From the IMG/VR virus record IMGVR_UViG_3300033553_000092, positions 1 through 53,984 of that record: a DNA stretch of 53,984 bases. The stretch is one strand, 5' to 3'. Under the pieces are notes generated by a model. That model was not told the origin of the DNA, did not search any database, and saw only the letters and a program-made list of their open reading frames with translations. Numbering within the stretch: the first letter of the stretch is position 1; each line of letters starts with the position of its first letter. Source of the DNA: a virus. The position numbers and the translations under genes were made by a program. Shown here piece after piece: positions 142 to 53,902 of this stretch.

Positions 142-220
142 CGCAGAAAATGCAGTACGGAAGCATCCCAGTTCCGTATCCTTGCTCCTGAACGATCCCG
201 AGTCTCATCTCATGCTTCAT
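56..220 (-). CDS. Small zinc-ribbon-like protein (54 aa)
   Basis: Start chosen at ATG 220 because of the good ribosome-binding site GAGGAGG just upstream and the ATGA overlap with the helicase-loader stop at 217. A CxxC pair (YCIFCGW) and Trp/Tyr-rich C-terminus suggest half of a small zinc knuckle; no second Cys pair is visible, so metal binding is unproven. The gene sits directly after the DnaC-like loader in the early operon and crosses the assembly junction. Function unknown. Confidence 0.7.
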   Translation of the reverse strand: MKHEMRLGIVQEQGYGTGMLPYCIFCGWIGQAQFLYEGKAVTEQWIGHMREIRE

Positions 221-963
221 CGCTTTCCTCCTCGTTGGCTCTTGCCGGGGATCGCTACAGACAGCATCGTGTCCGCCCACCTATCGACGAACCTGGCCCA
301 CTCAGGCACAGACCTCAACGTAGCGGTGGTCAGGTTCGTCGTCACGAGCATCGGGCGACCTCCTGCGGTCCTCTTCTCCACAATCAAATCAATCGTCCCT
401 ACGGTCCAAGGGGCAGGCTCTAACACGCCCCAGTCATCCAGGACCAACAGCTCGGGAGCGACCATCTGGTCAACAATCGACGCCCTGGTCACTTCCTTGT
501 TCTCCAGATTCGTGATCAGCTCAGCAGCATTCACAAACCGAGATCGTATTCCTTGATCCCATAGCGCCTTCGAAGCGAGAGCAGCAGCCATCGACTTGCC
601 TGTACCAACAGGACCATGAATCAACAACCCTTCTCCACGAACACGGTTCTGGACCCACTTACCAATCAGATCAGCCGCACGACAAGTCTCCCAATTCGAT
701 TCAAGAACGTACTTGCGTGGCCAACCTCGACCGATCATCAACTGATCACGTTCACGACGAGCGATCACCGGGATCAGACAAGGCGGTTCCACGTTCATCA
801 GCGGACACTGACCGGCGATCGTCAGCTCTTCGTGCTCGTAACGAATCTGACCATTGCAGTCGGCATGGCAGGGCGGAACAAAATCACCACTCTCGTTCAG
901 ACGAAACAGCGTCTCCGTGGCCTTCCGTTTCCGGTCCACGATGGCGCTCCACTCTGCCTCCAT
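217..963 (-). CDS. DnaC/IstB-like helicase-loader ATPase
   Basis: AAA+ ATPase of about 248 aa. The N-terminus has a Cys/His cluster (CHADC, then two more Cys) that may bind zinc. Walker A GPVGTGKS lies near residues 117-124, Walker B LLVLDDWG follows about 60 residues later, and a sensor-1 motif TTNLT near the C-terminus. Proteins of this type load the replicative helicase onto phage or host DNA. No phage helicase or polymerase is recognisable here, so it probably recruits host DnaB to the phage origin. The start is ambiguous: ATG 963 or ATG 987. Either way the gene overlaps its upstream neighbour by 80-104 bases, unusual for this compact genome. The next gene starts by ATGA overlap. Confidence 0.9.
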   Translation of the reverse strand: MEAEWSAIVDRKRKATETLFRLNESGDFVPPCHADCNGQIRYEHEELTIAGQCPLMNVEPPCLIPVIARRERDQLMIGRGWPRKYVLESNWETCRAADLIGKWVQNRVRGEGLLIHGPVGTGKSMAAALASKALWDQGIRSRFVNAAELITNLENKEVTRASIVDQMVAPELLVLDDWGVLEPAPWTVGTIDLIVEKRTAGGRPMLVTTNLTTATLRSVPEWARFVDRWADTMLSVAIPGKSQRGGKR

Positions 964-5078: not shown

Positions 5079-5158
5079 GAGTTGGCGAGGATTTTTTCGA
5101 TCACCCAACCGAGCCAAATTCCGACCAGAACCATCGGACGAAGCACATCCCGCCACAT
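5075..5158 (-). CDS. Membrane microprotein (27 aa)
   Basis: ATG 5158 overlaps the lipoprotein stop by one base (TGATG). The sequence is one hydrophobic helix (VLRPMVLVGIWLGWVIEKI) with charged ends, a predicted single-pass membrane peptide. Its TGA stop lies inside the -35 box of promoter P1. Possibly acts with the lipoprotein upstream at the host membrane. Confidence 0.65.
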   Translation of the reverse strand: MWRDVLRPMVLVGIWLGWVIEKILANS

Positions 5159-5538
5159 CAGCGCCCAGGACAGACCAGATCAAATACGCCTCCAACGAAG
5201 TACGCCATGAGCAGCCCATCGTCCGTACTCCATGTCGGATCATTGGAAGCGAAGATTTCAATGGCGCTCGTGTACGCTTGCTCTTTCGTCCAGTCGTTGT
5301 CGTAGCCCTGACAGATGATGTCGGCCAGTTCGAACATATAAGCGTCGTCCATGATGTCGACCCAGGTGACCGAGACCATCGCCGCTGACTCTTCTCTCGT
5401 CAGATCGATGGCGTCCTGGACCGTGAACGCCAAAGCTGACGGATTGGCTACCGGGGTTTGCGTATCTGCGGAACCACAGGCTCCGAGAACAACGACTGCA
5501 ACGAGCAGCCAGGTACTTAGCTTTCTAAAATGGCGCAT
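5158..5538 (-). CDS. Phage-encoded lipoprotein (126 aa)
   Basis: Start at ATG 5538, nine bases after GAGGAAG. A basic n-region (RHFRK), a hydrophobic core (LSTWLLVAVVVLGAC) and the lipobox LGAC predict lipidation at Cys21 or so. The mature part is acidic and soluble (DLTREESAAMVSVTWVDIMD), ending in LVCPGR. Phage lipoproteins anchored in the cytoplasmic membrane often block superinfection or DNA entry; that role is inferred. It overlaps the SSB stop and is coupled to a 27-aa membrane peptide. Confidence 0.85.
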   Translation of the reverse strand: MRHFRKLSTWLLVAVVVLGACGSADTQTPVANPSALAFTVQDAIDLTREESAAMVSVTWVDIMDDAYMFELADIICQGYDNDWTKEQAYTSAIEIFASNDPTWSTDDGLLMAYFVGGVFDLVCPGR

Positions 5539-5920
5539 ACGACTCATCTTCCTCAACATATTCGGGCTTCGGCATTCCAACCGAAACGTTCTTCGGAGAC
5601 AGACGATGAACAACCATCACATCGACCCGAGTACGAGACTGCTTCTTACCTTCCCTGTCCTCCCAGGATTGCTGCGACAACTCACCGAGCACATACAGCT
5701 TCTCGCCCTTGGCTTCTCCAAGTTCATCGGCCCAATACTCGGCGTTCGGACCGGCCATCTCACAGCGGATGAACGAGGTCGTCACGACCTGCTGCCTTTC
5801 CTTCGAATCGTATCGAGCACCGTTCACCGCCAATGTCCACGACAGGATCGGCCACCCGCCAGGCGTGTACTTCAACTCGGGGACAGTCGTCAGACCGCCA
5901 GCCAGTTCAACCTTGTTCAT
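5525..5920 (-). CDS. ssb: Single-stranded DNA-binding protein
   Basis: 131 aa. Typical SSB OB-fold opening (NKVELAGGLTTVPELKYTPG, then WTLAVN), a mid-domain GEKLYVLGELSQQSWEDREG strand pair, and a short acidic tail ending DESYAPF, comparable to the DIPF tip of bacterial SSB that recruits partners. Short for a bacterial SSB (about 150-180 aa) but usual for phage. ATG 5920 overlaps its upstream neighbour by ATGA. Functions with the RecB-like nuclease and the annealing-like protein. Confidence 0.92.
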   Translation of the reverse strand: MNKVELAGGLTTVPELKYTPGGWPILSWTLAVNGARYDSKERQQVVTTSFIRCEMAGPNAEYWADELGEAKGEKLYVLGELSQQSWEDREGKKQSRTRVDVMVVHRLSPKNVSVGMPKPEYVEEDESYAPF

Positions 5921-8336: not shown

Positions 8337-9770
8337 TTAGCTCTTGGCCAAGTACAGAACCGGATCGTCCGAATCATCAACGATGTGCGTAACGTCCAGC
8401 TCCCCTCGGATCACCGAAGCGATCGTGTTCGACAGAGCACGCTCCAACGGAACCGGCCCAGTGCCTTCCTCCGCACCGTTCATCATGTCCAACTGCGGGC
8501 GCAAGCCAACAGCAGCATTGACGAAGTCGTCGGTGGTCAGCTCGTCGATCGTGCCGCCAGTCCGAGCGATGGCATACCGCTTCGTGCGATCAATCGACTC
8601 ACGAACAAAGGCAGGCAAGAAGTCCGTCATGGCCTCCGCTACCTTGTCGAAGTCGATGTCGCCAAGCAGCTCCTCAGCCACCGTCGCCTTGATCAATTTC
8701 TCAAACGCCGACCGATCCAACGACCCAATCTGGATCACCGCATCGAGACGCCCTGGCCGAACCATGCCCTTGTGGATCTTCTCCGGGTGATTCGTCGTCA
8801 ACAGAACCATCAACTCGGTTCCCTTGGCCGTGATCCCATCGAACGTGTCCAACAGCTTGGTCACTGTGTCTGTGTCGTCCGAGGACGAGATCGTATCGAC
8901 ATCTTCGAAGAAGACGACAGCAGGTTCGTACAGCCGAGCCGTCTGCATTACCGTGGACAGGTCATCTTGACCCGGACGGCAATACACGAACGTCCAACCA
9001 TTAGCTCCCGCTTCCTTGGCAGTCAGAAACGCCCCGAGAGTCTTGCCGGTCCCATACGGACCAGTCAGAAGCACGGACCGCTTCAGCGGAACACCGTTGT
9101 CCTTCAGTGCTTGCGTGTATCGGAGTGGCGCCCAAACATTCGCTTCTAGCTGGGACATCACTTCTTCCGTGTACACGATCTGCGTCTCGTCGATGCCACC
9201 GAGATCGATGAACTCCGGGTCTTCGGCACCATTGAACGCCTTGCCCCGATAGATCGAGGCGGTTTCCAGCTGATTCTCGATCAGCTTGAACAGGCCGTTC
9301 ACTGCATGACGATGCTTCTTGCGGCACTCGACGTAGACGACTCCGAGCATCCCATATTCGGGATCTCTCGTCGACGACAGCGTCAGAGTTCCGTCAAACA
9401 GCGGGACGTACAGGTTGCCCCAAGGCACCTGCATGACCTCATCATGCGATACGTTGATCGTCTTCATCTCCGGTGGCGTCGAACCAAAGAACGAGAACGT
9501 CCTGATTCCAACACCGGACATTCCGGTCAGTTCCTTGATCGCCCGAGCGGTAGCAGCGGCAACGTCCCAGGGACGGTACTTGAACTTCCGGTCGAACTGG
9601 GTCGTCTTCTCCTCCGCATCGATGTGCGAGACCAGGGCATCAACAGCACCCTGAGCCGACATCGACGACGGGACAACCAGACGGGTCCCTTCGAACGTGA
9701 TCGAGTCCTCCGAGAACTTCCGATCACCTAGCTTGGCTAATTCATTGAGAATCTTTTCATCCACAGACAA
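8337..9770 (-). CDS. AAA+ ATPase (classic FtsH/Cdc48-type clade)
   Basis: 477 aa. Walker A GPYGTGKT near residues 237-244, Walker B AVVFFEDVD about 45 residues on, sensor 1 LLTTNHPEK, and the second-region RPGRLD motif that supplies the arginine finger of classic AAA proteins. The N-terminal 200 residues are an unfamiliar substrate-recognition region; there is no protease or helicase domain. Likely a hexameric protein-remodelling ATPase acting on host or phage replication/transcription complexes. TTG start at 9770 after AAAGGAAA; a GTG three codons in is an alternative. Related stand-alone AAA+ genes occur in other actinophages (recalled). Confidence 0.9.
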   Translation of the reverse strand: MSVDEKILNELAKLGDRKFSEDSITFEGTRLVVPSSMSAQGAVDALVSHIDAEEKTTQFDRKFKYRPWDVAAATARAIKELTGMSGVGIRTFSFFGSTPPEMKTINVSHDEVMQVPWGNLYVPLFDGTLTLSSTRDPEYGMLGVVYVECRKKHRHAVNGLFKLIENQLETASIYRGKAFNGAEDPEFIDLGGIDETQIVYTEEVMSQLEANVWAPLRYTQALKDNGVPLKRSVLLTGPYGTGKTLGAFLTAKEAGANGWTFVYCRPGQDDLSTVMQTARLYEPAVVFFEDVDTISSSDDTDTVTKLLDTFDGITAKGTELMVLLTTNHPEKIHKGMVRPGRLDAVIQIGSLDRSAFEKLIKATVAEELLGDIDFDKVAEAMTDFLPAFVRESIDRTKRYAIARTGGTIDELTTDDFVNAAVGLRPQLDMMNGAEEGTGPVPLERALSNTIASVIRGELDVTHIVDDSDDPVLYLAKS

Positions 9771-41933: not shown

Positions 41934-42472
41934 AGAACGGTCCATCCTTTCCTAATCGAATGCGTCACATACCAGGGCTTCTCACCAAGCAATGTAACAG
42001 CCGCCTGCCAATCAGCCGTCAAACCAAGGCGATGCTCACGGTAAACGTCCAGAGCCTCAGGCACGTTCTCAGCGTTACAGGCATCGATGGCGACCACTCC
42101 GATCACTTCACCGAACTCGACGATGGGACGAGTCGGGTGGGCTGCACACTCCAACGTGAACGCCAAGTCACCATCATGGATGCTGCGACCAATCAGCTCG
42201 GGCGTCCAGTGCGTCTTGTCCAGAATGAACATGCCAGTCCCATGCGGATCAGCCACAACGATGTCCCACCAGCCGAGCAGACGAACCTCAGCTTCGGTGA
42301 ACGTCAACTCCTGAGACACGCCAATGTGAGCACAGCACTCAGGGACACCAACAACCGTCCGAGCGCAGCAGAAACCGTTGGCACCCTTCAGCGAAGTAAC
42401 CGAACGAAACCTTGCCACAATCTCGTCATACAAGACTTTCTTACCGGCCAGTTTGTCAATGTCATCGAACAT
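41930..42472 (-). CDS. Hypothetical protein (180 aa)
   Basis: Cys-rich N-terminal region (GFCCARTVVGVPECCAHIGV) then a soluble alpha/beta body (WWDIVVADPHGTGMFILDKT; IVEFGEVIGVVAIDACNAEN) and an ending PWYVTHSIRKGWTVL. No family recognised. ATG overlaps the glycosyltransferase stop by one base; it might take part in the glycan/ParB module. Confidence 0.8.
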   Translation of the reverse strand: MFDDIDKLAGKKVLYDEIVARFRSVTSLKGANGFCCARTVVGVPECCAHIGVSQELTFTEAEVRLLGWWDIVVADPHGTGMFILDKTHWTPELIGRSIHDGDLAFTLECAAHPTRPIVEFGEVIGVVAIDACNAENVPEALDVYREHRLGLTADWQAAVTLLGEKPWYVTHSIRKGWTVL

Positions 42473-43911
42473 CAGTCTCCTTTGCGGAACACTCCCCGAG
42501 CGTCACCAGTGTCCACCAGATCGGGATGCTCCCGTAACAGGATGTCGACACACAACCATGGCGACGTAGCCCGAGATTCAGTGGCCTGCTTCCGCACGTC
42601 GAGGTTCTCAGCGTGCTTCTTGATGCCATCGTAGAACAATTCCAGGTCGAACTCTGTCGGCAGCCACTCGTACACCTGGCCGATCAGTTCAGTCAGAGCC
42701 GGGGTTGCAGCCCGCAAGCTGGCCAGCCGCTTCTCGTTCAACTCAGCGATCCACACCACCATCCGAGGAACAATCGCATTCAGATCGAACTCACGGCGGA
42801 TCTTCTCCTGAATGTCTGGCATCCACTCAGCATGCACAGCTTCGTAATTGTCACAGACGTATCGGAGCATCGCCTGACCCTCAGACATCGACTCAAACAG
42901 ATACGGATACCCATTCGGAACCAGATACTCGGACCATGGCTCCCTGACCAGAACGGGGATCAGACCGGAGTACATCTGCTCGACAACCGTGGCCGAGAAG
43001 TCTTCGTACCACGAGTTCGAAATGAACACATGCGCCTGGGCCATCTGCTTCAAGAACGCCGTCCTGCCCATCGAACCGTACGTCCGAATGTACTTGTACT
43101 GACGAGCGGACTTCAACATGTGCATCTTCGACGCAGACGAACCAGTGACAATCTGCAACTCAATCGGACGACCACCAGCGAACGTCGAGTCCATGATCTT
43201 CAACGATTCCAGGAACTTCTGTTCGATGAACAGCTTGTGCGAATAGTTCACCGTCAGCTTCTCGTACTTGTGCGACCTCTCAGCCATGTTGATCTGATCG
43301 ACCTCGGCACAATCGATACCCAACGGGAACACCATCGAGTTCTCCCGCATACGAGCCAGGTTCGTGCCAGTCACATGCTTACGAGCCACTGTCATCGCCC
43401 GATCCAATTGATGCGGCGACTGGTAGATCGTCGGGGCAGACACCCAGCCGAACACTTCAAGCAGCTCGTCACCGAAATGTATCTTCTCCGATTCAGAGGT
43501 CATAACGAACTGGTCACGATTCACCACCAGCGGATTCCTCGACTTGGACAGAACATGGAACGAGGCAAGGTTCCTGAGCATCGGGGCGAGCATGGGCCGC
43601 TCTGACAGGATCACATCGAAGTAGTACTCCCCGAACCGTTCGTTGAACTTCTCCCAAAAGTCACGAGTCACCAACGCCAAGTCATCGAACTGGTGCTCAT
43701 GCATATCGATTTCGATTACATGCGTCCGGGGACCATCCCAATCAGCGCCACCCTGCCACCTGTTGTCCTCGTCCACCTTCGGCACCAGGACAAAAAAAAC
43801 CGAGTTCGGATCGATCTCCAAGGCGTGAGTACGAAACGATCGCCAGAAATTGTACGACGGGGCTGACTGAATGTTGCGGGCTGATACGACTGGCAGATAA
43901 ACGAGTCTCAT
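42472..43911 (-). CDS. Glycosyltransferase (GT-B, GT4-like), 479 aa
   Basis: N-terminal Rossmann half (RLVYLPVVSARNIQSAPSYN), a linker VFPLGIDCAEVDQ like the GT4 'GID/GVD' joint, and a C-terminal donor half with FISNSWYEDFSATVVEQMYS followed by PVLVREPWSEYLVPNGYPYL, the E..s...E......PV pattern of retaining GT4 enzymes. Last enzyme of the sugar operon. Likely adds a sugar to a virion or host surface acceptor, or to DNA. ATGA overlap with the WbqC gene. Confidence 0.9.
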   Translation of the reverse strand: MRLVYLPVVSARNIQSAPSYNFWRSFRTHALEIDPNSVFFVLVPKVDEDNRWQGGADWDGPRTHVIEIDMHEHQFDDLALVTRDFWEKFNERFGEYYFDVILSERPMLAPMLRNLASFHVLSKSRNPLVVNRDQFVMTSESEKIHFGDELLEVFGWVSAPTIYQSPHQLDRAMTVARKHVTGTNLARMRENSMVFPLGIDCAEVDQINMAERSHKYEKLTVNYSHKLFIEQKFLESLKIMDSTFAGGRPIELQIVTGSSASKMHMLKSARQYKYIRTYGSMGRTAFLKQMAQAHVFISNSWYEDFSATVVEQMYSGLIPVLVREPWSEYLVPNGYPYLFESMSEGQAMLRYVCDNYEAVHAEWMPDIQEKIRREFDLNAIVPRMVVWIAELNEKRLASLRAATPALTELIGQVYEWLPTEFDLELFYDGIKKHAENLDVRKQATESRATSPWLCVDILLREHPDLVDTGDARGVFRKGD

Positions 43912-44540
43912 CCGATGATCATAGGAACAGGATCACGATGCGTCATCAACACGGTCAGAACAGAATCGGACGTGACTGGCTTGTGCTCCGACCAGACAAG
44001 ACGAATACCGGCATCTGCGAACACGGCTTCCGGGTTGTCACCCATGTACTCACGGCCACCGATACCGGACAGGTACTCGTCGGCACCGTAAATCTTGCAC
44101 AGCTCAATCAGACCATCAATGCCACGCATCACCAGAGGACGAGCAATCTTGACCTTCGTCTCAATTCCAAGCCGCTCCATCACGGCGTAAATCAGGTTCG
44201 CATTCAGGTTCGTGAGCTGCACCGAAGGACCGCTGTCATCGATGGCGTCGAGCAGCCACCCTGCCTCACGCTTCCAGTACCTGTGGCCCGAGTACCGACC
44301 AACGATCGTGTCGATCAGAACCTGTCTGGCATTGGGAGCAAGACGAACATCGTAGATCGGACCAGCAAACGGTTTCTGGATCGGCAGCGAACACCAGTTG
44401 TCCATCATCTTCACCCGACGCTGATACCCGGCCTTCTGGAACTGGTCGTACAGGGCGATGTCGAACACGTCGCAATGGGCCATCTTCCACCAGAATCCCG
44501 GATACGGCAACAGATCAGGCTGATGGGCGGCGAGTCTCAT
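43908..44540 (-). CDS. WbqC-family protein
   Basis: 210 aa. Starts RLAAHQPDLLPYPGFWWKMA, the family opening ('QPxYLPwxGffekm'), followed by DVFDIALYDQFQKAGYQRRV and WCSLPIQKPFAGPIYDVRL. WbqC proteins sit in O-antigen and sialic/bacillosamine-type sugar loci; their exact reaction is not settled, with acyl or amino-sugar transfer proposed. Here it lies between a PIG-L deacetylase and a glycosyltransferase, consistent with building an N-acylated amino sugar. Confidence 0.87.
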   Translation of the reverse strand: MRLAAHQPDLLPYPGFWWKMAHCDVFDIALYDQFQKAGYQRRVKMMDNWCSLPIQKPFAGPIYDVRLAPNARQVLIDTIVGRYSGHRYWKREAGWLLDAIDDSGPSVQLTNLNANLIYAVMERLGIETKVKIARPLVMRGIDGLIELCKIYGADEYLSGIGGREYMGDNPEAVFADAGIRLVWSEHKPVTSDSVLTVLMTHRDPVPMIIG

Positions 44541-45151
44541 CGGACACTCCTGACAAGGGCATACTGCTCTGCGTACCAGACCTTGCGGGCCTGACCGATT
44601 GCGTGGGCCATCTCGACGACACCGTTCATCGGATGGAACCCCTCTGGCACCTGGGACTCATACGCATCACACGCCCGCTTCTTGGCGGCTACCTGCTCGC
44701 CGGTCAACTCTTCGAAGACATTCCAACGGAGGTCGGACGGATACAGATTCAGGTCGTAGACGGCCACGTCATACACGAACACGTTCGGAACGAACCAATG
44801 CTCCGACGACATCGACATGCGACAAGCACGCATCCCTGCCTCATACACGGCGACGTGATCCTGATGCGAAGACGGGAACGGCAGGTACACCGAGTCAGGA
44901 CGAATCTGGTCGATCATATAATCCAGGTAGCCGACCAACTTGTACATGTCCTCACCGAGACGACCATCCTCAAACCTACCGACCGACCAAGACCCACAAT
45001 CAAGCTCCTTCATAGCATTGGAAAACTCGTTGAATCGTACGTCCGGGGTACTAGCCATAACCGTGATGTGGCACTCAGTCGGGTACTTGGCTATCAGCCC
45101 ACCACACCCAAGCGACTCGTCATCAGCGTGCGGAGCGACAATCAGTCTCAT
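44537..45151 (-). CDS. PIG-L/LmbE-family N-deacetylase
   Basis: 204 aa. Metal motif APHADDESLGCGG (family AHPDDE) at residues about 6-18 and a second site PSSHQDHVAVYEAGMRAC (HxxH) near residue 95-100, with a YDLNLYPSDLRW C-terminal segment. These zinc enzymes remove acetyl from GlcNAc-type sugars or, in MshB/BshB relatives, thiol intermediates. In this operon a free amino group exposed by deacetylation would be the substrate for the WbqC-type partner. Confidence 0.9.
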   Translation of the reverse strand: MRLIVAPHADDESLGCGGLIAKYPTECHITVMASTPDVRFNEFSNAMKELDCGSWSVGRFEDGRLGEDMYKLVGYLDYMIDQIRPDSVYLPFPSSHQDHVAVYEAGMRACRMSMSSEHWFVPNVFVYDVAVYDLNLYPSDLRWNVFEELTGEQVAAKKRACDAYESQVPEGFHPMNGVVEMAHAIGQARKVWYAEQYALVRSVR

Positions 45152-51234: not shown

Positions 51235-51489
51235 TCACTCCACCGGCATAATCGAAATCACCTGAAACTGAACGAACGTCCGAATGGCCTCTTCGGTTTC
51301 AAGCCATTCCTCCCCGCTCTTGCGAACGAATCCTCGGATACGAAACTCCACTTCCGAACCGAGTTTCGGCATCTCCTGAACGAACGTGCTCATCCCTGTG
51401 AACGTCGCCTTCACCGCTGCGAGATCGAGCGGCAGACCTCCGAGGTTCGAAGCCTCGATATCCTCTTCCAAAAGGGTCTCCTTCGGCAT
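51235..51489 (-). CDS. Hypothetical protein overlapping the HNH gene (84 aa)
   Basis: ATG 51489, in another frame within the HNH gene's last 190 bases. Sequence EEDIEASNLGGLPLDLAAVK then EFRIRGFVRKSGEEWLETEE looks like a genuine beta-rich protein, whereas the HNH frame there is arginine-rich and unlike coding. Function unknown. Confidence 0.75.
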   Translation of the reverse strand: MPKETLLEEDIEASNLGGLPLDLAAVKATFTGMSTFVQEMPKLGSEVEFRIRGFVRKSGEEWLETEEAIRTFVQFQVISIMPVE

Positions 51490-51757
51490 TCCAATCAACC
51501 CAACCTTCCTGTTTCAGATACTCCAACACTTCATCCGGTAGCTTCTCCGGGGCCAACAGTATCGTCCGGGCATGAACACCAGTATGGCAGGACTCGCACA
51601 GCGTCACACCGTTACGCCGGTCCAATCTGGCTCCACCCTGAGACCGATATCGAACGTGGTGGGCGTGCAGATACATGAACCCATTGCAGAGCACGCACCG
51701 ATTGCCGTCACGAGTCAGAACAGCATCTCGCCAACCAGACATCGATTTCTGAGCCAT
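51299..51757 (-). CDS. HNH endonuclease (C-terminus anomalous)
   Basis: Start ATG 51757. HNH core: NRCVLCNGFMYLHAHHVRYR (Cx2C...HH), SQGGARLDRRNGVTLCESCH (Asn plus CxxCH). Typical zinc-stabilised HNH, used near phage packaging or as a mobile nuclease. The last 60 residues (EPRRSAARSRSGEGDVHRDE) lie in the frame of the overlapping gene and look out of frame, so a frameshift or lost stop codon is likely. Confidence 0.85.
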   Translation of the reverse strand: MAQKSMSGWRDAVLTRDGNRCVLCNGFMYLHAHHVRYRSQGGARLDRRNGVTLCESCHTGVHARTILLAPEKLPDEVLEYLKQEGWVDWNAEGDPFGRGYRGFEPRRSAARSRSGEGDVHRDEHVRSGDAETRFGSGVSYPRIRSQERGGMA

Positions 51758-51876
51758 CAGGAACCGTCCAGGGACGAGATGTCGGGGAGGACCGGAGAAC
51801 GGATGCCGCACTCAGGTTGGAACACATCCTGCGGCTGGCCGAAGTCCCCCCCGACGATTTCAAATCTATCACACAT
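51757..51876 (-). CDS. Hypothetical protein (39 aa)
   Basis: ATG 51876 two bases before the transglycosylase stop; TGA at 51757 overlaps the HNH ATG (TGATG). Sequence CDRFEIVGGDFGQPQDVFQP. Short gene joining the two; supported only by its junctions. Confidence 0.6.
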   Translation of the reverse strand: MCDRFEIVGGDFGQPQDVFQPECGIRSPVLPDISSLDGS

Positions 51877-51877
51877 A

Positions 51878-52282
51878 TCAGCCCCCACACACCCAATGCG
51901 ACGAGCCGCCCCACGAGAACAGCCAGGCCGAAACAGCTATGTTCGCCTCAGGGTCAAACACCGAAGCACCGGCCCAACCAGCACTAGCTGCTCGCTCGGG
52001 CCAGAAACGGCCAAGCTGCTGAAACAAACCAGACGCTGACGAGTTCGGATTCTTGGCGTACGGATCTCCTTCAGATTCGCAATCCATAACCGTCAGCGCC
52101 CAAGAGACATCTTCGGGCAACCAGTACCTCTCAACAAACGGCAACCAATAATCAACGGTGCCATCCCACTCATCAGCAGTCGGAGGCGGTTCAAACACTC
52201 GACCTCCATCTTCGGGCCGCTCCAAAGCAGGAACGGTCAAACTGGCGATCGCAACCGCACCAGCAACAATCATCTGAGCCAT
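51878..52282 (-). CDS. Secreted lytic transglycosylase-like protein (134 aa)
   Basis: Signal-like hydrophobic N-terminus (QMIVAGAVAIASLTVPALER), then an SLT-type core: LTVMDCESEGDPYAKNPNSS (catalytic Glu), SASGLFQQLGRFWPERAASA and IAVSAWLF. It cleaves peptidoglycan glycan strands. Shorter than the usual 150-180 aa and lacking a substrate-binding tail. Early expression and export mark it as a local wall-modifying enzyme, not the lysin. Strong RBS AAGGAGATTTCGT. Confidence 0.87.
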   Translation of the reverse strand: MAQMIVAGAVAIASLTVPALERPEDGGRVFEPPPTADEWDGTVDYWLPFVERYWLPEDVSWALTVMDCESEGDPYAKNPNSSASGLFQQLGRFWPERAASAGWAGASVFDPEANIAVSAWLFSWGGSSHWVCGG

Positions 52283-52343: not shown

Positions 52344-53162
52344 CTAACTCTCGGTTCGTAGTCGAGCAATCGTCACCAGTCCCATCCCACCAGCCAGCAA
52401 CGCCATGGCAATCGCAACAAGCTGCCACGACTCCAACCCTGTGAACGGCAACACGCCTGGCGTGATCGGAGCATCGTCACAGCTATCCTTGAACACACCC
52501 TCAGCCAAGACGTTCGTCGTACCCGCTTCATAGATCACCCAAGCGTCTCCACCACTCACCTGATCTGAGAAGTCATAGCTCCCAGGAACCAGGTCAGCAT
52601 CAATCAGGCCAGTCTGGAATCGAATGTCAACGTCGGTCGTAACAAACCCGCACGGATCATCCACATTGAACGTCGACGGGGTCGTGGTATCCACCGTCGT
52701 CGTGTCGGTGATAGCTGATGTCGTAGGGGTGCGAGCCGTAGTCGTGGTCACATCGGATACAGTCGTCGTGGTCGATTCCTGAGTCGTTGTCGTTGTCGAT
52801 TTTTCATCCTCCGTGGTCGTAGTCGTTTCCTCGTCCTCCCGAGTCGTAGTCGTTGTCTCCCCTTCAAGACAATTACTGATCGTCAGAACGTTGGCGTTGT
52901 CGATCCAGTGAATCCCGAACTCGCACGGCAACTTCTCGCTACCGTTTCCAACCCAATCGTGGCGCTCAGTAAAGGCAGCACCAGGATTCGTGTCAGGCGT
53001 TTCGTAATGAACGGTCGGGTCATTGGCATTACCAACCACCTTCGTCGGGCTGTACTCTTGGCCATCGACAGTCAGAACGTGATCTCCAGAGGCGAGCGCC
53101 GGGAGCATCCCGAACACCACCACTGACGACACGATCATCGCCATTCCTAATCTCCGCAACAT
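52344..53162 (-). CDS. Secreted surface protein with Thr-rich stalk and LPFTG sortase signal
   Basis: 272 aa from ATG 53162 (AGAAGTGAC upstream). Signal peptide at 1-25 (RRLGMAMIVSSVVVFGMLPA, cut after ALA). Mature part: a first domain with two Cys (LPCEFG, ISNCLEG), a long Thr-rich stalk with acidic interruptions (TTTTTREDEETTTTTED-like), and a second domain with two Cys (DPCGF, DSCDD). C-terminus LPFTG (238-242, 52437-52451), hydrophobic helix and ARLRTES: a complete cell-wall sorting signal. A host sortase would anchor it covalently to peptidoglycan during infection. Phage LPXTG proteins are rare; the stalk resembles Acidimicrobiia proteins. Possible superinfection-exclusion or surface-masking factor. 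Confidence 0.9.
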   Translation of the reverse strand: MLRRLGMAMIVSSVVVFGMLPALASGDHVLTVDGQEYSPTKVVGNANDPTVHYETPDTNPGAAFTERHDWVGNGSEKLPCEFGIHWIDNANVLTISNCLEGETTTTTREDEETTTTTEDEKSTTTTTQESTTTTVSDVTTTTARTPTTSAITDTTTVDTTTPSTFNVDDPCGFVTTDVDIRFQTGLIDADLVPGSYDFSDQVSGGDAWVIYEAGTTNVLAEGVFKDSCDDAPITPGVLPFTGLESWQLVAIAMALLAGGMGLVTIARLRTES

Positions 53163-53170
53163 TGTCACTT

Positions 53171-53275
53171 CTAATTCTCCATTCGTTCGTTGTACTTCCG
53201 TATCTTGCTCAATGCCCAGGCCACCACAAACGGCAGAAGCACCAGGTACAGAGCAATCCAATCAAACCATCTCAT
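53171..53275 (-). CDS. Single-pass membrane microprotein (34 aa)
   Basis: ATG 53275 after AAGGAGACAAACGA. Transmembrane helix (WIALYLVLLPFVVAWAL) and a basic tail (SKIRKYNERMEN). Directly upstream of the LPFTG gene, 8 bases between. Probably acts with it at the envelope; function unknown. Confidence 0.72.
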   Translation of the reverse strand: MRWFDWIALYLVLLPFVVAWALSKIRKYNERMEN

Positions 53276-53391
53276 TCGTTTGTCTCCTTCGCCCATTCAT
53301 AAAGCCGACCGAGCGTGAACGTCGTGAACCCGAAGATCAACCATCTTGTGATCTGAGCGACCGTCTCCAGCAACGCCAAGAAGTCGCTCAT
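53272..53391 (-). CDS. Membrane microprotein ending in KETNE (39 aa)
   Basis: ATG 53391 after AAGGAGACAAGCGA. Hydrophobic helix (ITRWLIFGFTTFTLGRLY) and the shared end AKETNE. ATGA overlap with the next gene. Envelope-module peptide of unknown role. Confidence 0.72.
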   Translation of the reverse strand: MSDFLALLETVAQITRWLIFGFTTFTLGRLYEWAKETNE

Positions 53392-53654
53392 TCGCTTGTC
53401 TCCTTCACCCAGCCGCAAACATCACAAACGTCAGTGGCTAAGTACGGGCATTCCTGATCTTGGCGAGTACGGTTCGGATGCCTGGCAACCTCGCTTGTCT
53501 CCTTCACCTGCACTAATTCAAGCGAATCGGGATACGTACGACGGTTGGTTTCGCATCCAAACCCAACCCAATCGGCCGCCAGGTCTAGCATCTCGGTTGC
53601 AGTGTCGGGTGTCCAGTCGGCGTCATCCCACGTCAATACAATCTGTCGGCTCAT
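53388..53654 (-). CDS. Hypothetical protein, apparent fusion at an internal KETSE (88 aa)
   Basis: ATG 53654 after AAGGAGACAAGCGA. First part SRQIVLTWDDADWTPDTATE, then internal VQVKETSEVARH, where a TGA-containing copy of the repeat would have ended a gene, then a Cys-bearing zinc-like end (ECPYLATDVCDVCGW) with a second KETSE. Best read as two formerly separate small genes now in one frame. Confidence 0.78.
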   Translation of the reverse strand: MSRQIVLTWDDADWTPDTATEMLDLAADWVGFGCETNRRTYPDSLELVQVKETSEVARHPNRTRQDQECPYLATDVCDVCGWVKETSE

Positions 53655-53902
53655 TCGCTTGTCTCCTTCCATATTCCAAGCCGCTTCGCAACGGGGTCTC
53701 GGTCGAGCGGAGGAGACAGATACTTATGCGCCCATACAGCCTCCCGAAGCATCTCAGCGCCCAACACCGGATCACCGTCACCCATCAGCGTGTTCAGCTT
53801 CAACCTTGCCCGGTTCTCACGCCACACCCAATACGGGTTCGTGAGCTTGTCGAGCCATCGGTAGCCGGTAGCGGTTCGTTCTCGATCTGGTCGCCAGCTC
53901 AT
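53651..53902 (-). CDS. Hypothetical protein ending in KETSE (83 aa)
   Basis: ATG 53902 (ATGA overlap across the assembly junction) after GAGGGAGATAAGAGA. Starts SWRPDRERTATGYRW, then RENRARLKLNTLMGDGD, ending GIWKETSE. Compact basic/helical protein with conserved Trp/Tyr; unknown role. Its 5' end lies in the terminal repeat. Confidence 0.78.
   Translation of the reverse strand: MSWRPDRERTATGYRWLDKLTNPYWVWRENRARLKLNTLMGDGDPVLGAEMLREAVWAHKYLSPPLDRDPVAKRLGIWKETSE

What the first reader, a model, noticed from the sequence alone, without database searches (positions are those of the whole stretch)
52344..53162. Phage-encoded LPXTG cell-wall protein with Thr-rich stalk
Signal peptide, two Cys-containing domains, Thr-rich linker and an intact sorting signal (LPFTG + hydrophobic helix + Arg tail) are read directly. 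A phage using the host sortase to display its own protein on the wall during infection is very unusual. It lies next to a secreted transglycosylase and membrane microproteins, suggesting an envelope-remodelling module: superinfection exclusion, masking of receptors, or host adhesion. The stalk style points to an Acidimicrobiia host.
Basis: partly seen in the sequence, partly recalled or inferred. Interest (0 to 1): 0.88.

Follow-up and report, generated by a model that had tools for sequence, protein, structure and literature searches.

The report
Phage-borne sortase-anchored Thr-stalk surface protein
A complete, apparently non-integrating phage genome carries a gene for a protein built like its bacterial host's own wall-attached surface proteins, so the phage probably displays it on the infected cell using the host's sortase enzyme, perhaps to block rival phages.

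Summary
Window 52344-53162 (-) encodes 272 aa: signal peptide, domain with C80/C98, Thr-rich stalk, second two-Cys domain, and a textbook sorting signal (LPFTG, hydrophobic helix, Arg tail). The record is a complete circularly assembled phage (141-bp exact terminal repeat, no integrase), distantly related to lytic Arthrobacter cluster AT phages. The gene is an accessory: no relative searched has it or any LPXTG signal; it sits between a DnaC-like loader and an HNH gene. New here: its N-terminal domain is homologous to an unnamed domain (not in Pfam) heading bacterial Actinomycetota surface proteins that carry LPXTG/LAXTG-type or TM-Arg tails, often Thr/Glu stalks, in genomes that all have sortases; one lies 22 nt from a sortase gene. 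In the phage the blocks run B-A-C instead of A-B-C. So the gene is of host surface-protein type. Display by host sortase is well supported; superinfection exclusion or receptor masking is inference (about 0.4). 'Very unusual' is overstated: prophage SasX is a precedent. Acidimicrobiia host: plausible, not shown. The neighbouring SLT gene is phage-widespread, so an 'envelope-remodelling module' is not demonstrated.

The parts
52344..53162 (-). LPXTG surface protein gene, 272 aa
53091..53162 (-). Sec signal peptide aa 1-24 (ALA|S)
   Evidence: read directly
52860..53090 (-). N-terminal domain aa 25-101, C80/C98, homologous to bacterial wall-protein domain but in block order B-A-C
52986..53078 (-). 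block B (VLTVDGQEYSPTKVVG..VHYETP), aa 29-59
   Evidence: 13.2 bits to A4 HMM positions 32-57
52896..52958 (-). block A (DWVGNGSEKLPCEFGIHWIDN), aa 69-89
   Evidence: 24.2 bits to A4 HMM positions 4-24
52863..52892 (-). block C (NVLTISNCLE), aa 91-100
   Evidence: 4.9 bits to A4 HMM positions 77-86; 0/2000 shuffles
52668..52859 (-). Thr/Glu-rich stalk aa 102-165
52455..52667 (-). C-terminal domain aa 166-236 with C171/C228, no credible homologue found
52437..52451 (-). LPFTG sortase motif aa 238-242
52347..52436 (-). hydrophobic helix and RLRTES tail
53171..53275 (-). 34-aa single-TM microprotein ending 8 nt before the LPXTG start codon
53272..53391 (-). 39-aa single-TM microprotein, stop/start overlap with the next gene
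51878..52282 (-). secreted SLT-domain protein, neighbour; probably an independent phage-widespread gene
51299..51811 (-). HNH endonuclease, downstream border of the accessory slot
217..939 (-). DnaC-like helicase loader, upstream border of the slot across the circular join

Best explanation
A host-type sortase substrate carried as an accessory (moron) gene by a virulent-type actinophage. It is translated from a leftward operon of non-structural genes, exported by Sec, its LPFTG is cut and joined to the wall by the host's sortase (the phage has none), and the stalk holds the two-Cys domains out on the surface of the infected cell. Shown: gene, signals, completeness of the phage, homology of the N-domain to bacterial surface proteins in sortase-positive genomes. 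Inferred: expression, sorting. Most likely benefit (inferred, about 0.4): a surface change that hinders adsorption or DNA entry of competing or sibling phages, working like CwpV or membrane Sie proteins, possibly by mimicking a host surface protein.
For: Architecture and complete sorting signal. Phage complete, no integrase, no sortase. N-domain homology: 38.5 bits against the A4 HMM versus a maximum of 10.2 in about 4,800 scored shuffles. Bacterial relatives have the same plan: L055 ends LPRTG+TM+RRS, L056 LAVTG+TM, L060/L061/L081 SP-domain-Thr/Glu stalk-TM-R/K tail. 5 of 5 such genomes have sortases; in G059 a sortase gene lies 22 nt downstream of the homologue. Accessory slot between conserved DnaC-like and HNH genes. 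Gene GC 0.554 equals phage GC 0.554, so it is resident and not a chimera. Related Arthrobacter phages described as primarily lytic, with only Galaxy encoding an integrase (PMC5513430). CwpV: a wall protein that blocks phage DNA injection (PMC4737114).
Against: No homologue of the whole protein or of this domain in any other virus searched, so there is no conservation argument for a phage function. The host and its sortase specificity are unknown; class E sortases of soil and freshwater actinobacteria prefer LAXTG (PMC5148588). Exclusion is not shown; adhesion or other roles fit as well.
Confidence: 0.42

Rival explanations
1. Sortase-displayed adhesin or aggregation factor: changes cell-cell or cell-particle contact of infected cells or debris, helping spread, like SasX-driven aggregation.
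For: A stalk carrying a small domain is the plan of fibrillar adhesins; prophage SasX promotes aggregation.
Against: Benefit is less obvious for a phage without lysogeny genes; no known adhesive domain.
Confidence: 0.22
2. Picked-up host surface gene with no selected phage function (passenger).
For: Absent from all relatives and other viruses searched.
Against: GC fully matches the phage, intact signals, no frameshift, tightly packed between coupled genes, domain already diverged and rearranged.
Confidence: 0.15
3. Membrane-held rather than wall-linked exclusion protein: the C-terminal helix alone anchors it and the LPFTG is not used.
For: L060/L061/L081 homologues have TM-R/K tails without a canonical LPXTG.
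Against: Canonical LPFTG with correct spacing; homologues L055/L056 have LPRTG/LAVTG; sortase gene next to the L060 gene.
Confidence: 0.15
4. Envelope-remodelling module acting together with the adjacent SLT hydrolase and TM microproteins.
For: Adjacency in one leftward operon.
Against: SLT homologues occur in many unrelated phages without an LPXTG neighbour, in one case also beside HNH.
Confidence: 0.1

Closest known systems
SasX (PhiSPbeta-like prophage of S. aureus ST239)
   Same: phage-borne gene for a cell-wall-anchored surface protein (PMC10232760)
   Different: temperate prophage of a Firmicute; sequence similarity not tested; role in colonisation and aggregation
Actinomycetota surface proteins L055/L056/L060/L061/L081 (this work)
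   Same: homologous N-terminal domain; Thr/Glu stalk in L060, L061 and L081; C-terminal sorting or TM-basic tail; sortase-positive genomes
   Different: bacterial chromosomes; domain blocks in A-B-C order; no match found to the phage's C-terminal two-Cys domain
CwpV of C. difficile
   Same: wall-displayed protein; proposed working model (blocks phage DNA injection)
   Different: host gene, different family and anchor; resemblance of function is only hypothesised
Kelleziovirus / cluster AT Arthrobacter phages and DanielleIgnace
   Same: capsid 43-48%, terminase ATPase 42-46%, similar gene order; DnaC-like/HNH slot as in DanielleIgnace
   Different: no LPXTG or Thr-stalk gene; GC 63% versus 55%

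Membership tests
Sortase-anchored (LPXTG) surface proteins | N-terminal Sec signal peptide | tested here: met
   sequence read; no signal-peptide predictor available
Sortase-anchored (LPXTG) surface proteins | C-terminal LPXTG, hydrophobic stretch, basic tail | tested here: met
   no hit to Pfam PF00746 and only a sub-threshold NCBIfam LAETG hit
Sortase-anchored (LPXTG) surface proteins | covalent linkage by a sortase | not testable with these tools
   host unknown; genomes with homologous domains have sortases
Bacterial W-G-LPC-GIHW / LTISNC domain family (unnamed) | blocks A, B and C with significant similarity | tested here: met
   0 of about 4,800 scored shuffles reach the score
Bacterial W-G-LPC-GIHW / LTISNC domain family (unnamed) | colinear A-B-C order | tested here: not met
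   phage order B-A-C
Superinfection exclusion system | protects the infected cell from further phage | not testable with these tools
   no hit in PADLOC; needs experiment
Cluster AT / Kelleziovirus-like phages | homologous split terminase, capsid, portal and gene order | tested here: met
   distant relative, 33-48% identity; not the same genus

The most novel reading that the evidence does not exclude
A lytic-type phage uses the host sortase during infection to display a rearranged copy of a host surface protein as an exclusion decoy on the wall, i.e. sortase-dependent superinfection exclusion.
Probability: 0.25. Interest if true: 0.8.

Novelty: new variant of a known kind. Interest (0 to 1): 0.5.

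Why it matters
Phage-borne sortase substrates are known from prophages as virulence factors. Here one sits in a phage with no sign of lysogeny, built on a host-type surface domain that no library searched names, in sortase-bearing Actinomycetota. If it is displayed during the lytic cycle, sortase becomes a host enzyme exploited for phage-phage competition, which is testable.

Tried and rejected
Pfam, PHROGs, NCBIfam and PADLOC for the protein: nothing above threshold. tblastn in phages and plasmids; pattern scans of viral and genome contigs with the protein: nothing. C-terminal domain in 396 Actinomycetota genomes: only weak chance-like hits. AlphaFold2 of both domains without alignment: poor, mean pLDDT 54 and 44, so no fold search was made. 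Generic sorting-signal queries against phages: no match, probably masked as low complexity, so the frequency of LPXTG in phages was not measured. tRNAs as host clue: none. Sortase in phage: none. Idea of chance LPXTG: rejected. Idea that the window is bacterial: rejected (terminase, portal, capsid, tail genes and terminal repeat). Weak A4 hits L062-L070 (E above 0.001): treated as chance.

Full report
WHAT IS THERE. The window is a whole virus record of 53,984 bp with an exact 141-bp direct terminal repeat, i.e. a circularly assembled, complete genome, GC 55.4%, with nearly all genes on the minus strand. Structural genes place it as a distant relative of Arthrobacter phages Kitkat/KellEzio (Kelleziovirus, cluster AT) and DanielleIgnace: capsid 43-48%, split terminase (ATPase part 42-46%), portal 33-34%. 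It has no tyrosine-type phage integrase and no sortase; the paper on the Arthrobacter phages calls them primarily lytic, with an integrase only in Galaxy (PMC5513430).

THE PROTEIN. 52344-53162 (-) gives 272 aa: signal peptide (ALA|S), N-domain with C80/C98, stalk with Thr runs separated by acidic residues, C-domain with C171/C228, then GVLPFTG-LESW-hydrophobic helix-RLRTES. The combination motif + helix + basic tail is found once here, never in 15 related records, and never in 60 randomised genomes.

SETTING. The gene lies in a packed leftward operon. The two preceding microproteins (34 and 39 aa, one TM each) are joined by stop/start overlaps with a repeated AAGGAGACAARCGAATGA element. After the circular join the slot is bordered by a DnaC-like loader (217-939) and an HNH gene (51299-51811), both conserved in DanielleIgnace and two viral contigs; the genes between them differ in the relatives, and none encodes a sorting signal. 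The adjacent SLT protein has its best match (66%) in a low-GC phage contig that lies in an Actinomycetota genome bin, also followed by HNH, and 27 viral contigs carry SLT domains at 54-66%. It is a phage-widespread gene, not a specific partner of the LPXTG gene.

ORIGIN OF THE N-DOMAIN. A search of 396 Actinomycetota genomes found two bacterial proteins matching the N-domain: 576 aa ending LPRTG-helix-RRS and 488 aa ending LAVTG-helix-basic. A profile of these (A4) found further surface proteins (L060, L061 with two tandem genes, L081) made of signal peptide, this domain, Thr/Glu stalk, TM and R/K tail. Bacterial order is A (W-G-GS-LPC-GIHW), B (LT-NG-Y-PTK-VG-HF-TPG), C (LTISNC); the phage has B-A-C. 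Score 38.5 bits against at most 10.2 in about 4,800 scored shuffles. All five genomes with such proteins encode sortases; in one, the sortase gene lies 22 nt after the homologue's stop. The domain is not in Pfam and was not found in any other virus searched.

READING. Shown: complete phage; intact sortase-substrate anatomy; host-type domain. Inferred: expression, sorting, function. Since the phage has no sortase, anchoring would need the host's. I favour a surface change that hinders rival phages, by analogy with CwpV (PMC4737114) and membrane Sie proteins, at about 0.4; adhesion/aggregation as in SasX is the main rival. Precedent lowers novelty: a prophage-encoded cell-wall-anchored protein, SasX, is established (PMC10232760).

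HOST. L060, L061 and L081 genomes fall in one large Actinomycetota class, and two genomes of that class also carry SLT homologues.

Noticed in passing
window 5158-5547 (-): Phage-encoded putative lipoprotein (signal peptide with lipobox VLGAC), no family above cut-off; lipoproteins are one known type of superinfection-exclusion protein.
   Followed up: partly
window 53272-53289, 53388-53405, 53651-53668 (-): Repeated stop/start coupling element AAGGAGACAARCGAATGA that makes several consecutive small genes end in KETSE/KETNE.
   Followed up: partly
L118 9298-10521, L134 6823-8157, L136 10103-11308, L123 3149-4453: An unrelated group of phage contigs (GC about 60%) encodes secreted proteins with a Cys-containing N-domain and very long Thr stalks but no LPXTG; many of these contigs also carry Thr-stalked SLT proteins.
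   Followed up: partly
window 42472-45151 (-): Cluster of glycosyltransferase, WbqC-like protein and PIG-L deacetylase next to a ParB-like nuclease, shared with DanielleIgnace; possible DNA or surface sugar modification.
   Followed up: no
window 8337-9764 (-): AAA ATPase (weak PADLOC match to IetA/TRIP13) 46-49% identical to proteins in two related viral contigs but not found in the Arthrobacter phages.
   Followed up: no
L108 4513-6181: Bacterial gene pair of Thr-stalk surface protein plus sortase, 22 nt apart; the surface protein's C-terminus lacks a canonical LPXTG (LAVAGEDG before the TM).
   Followed up: partly
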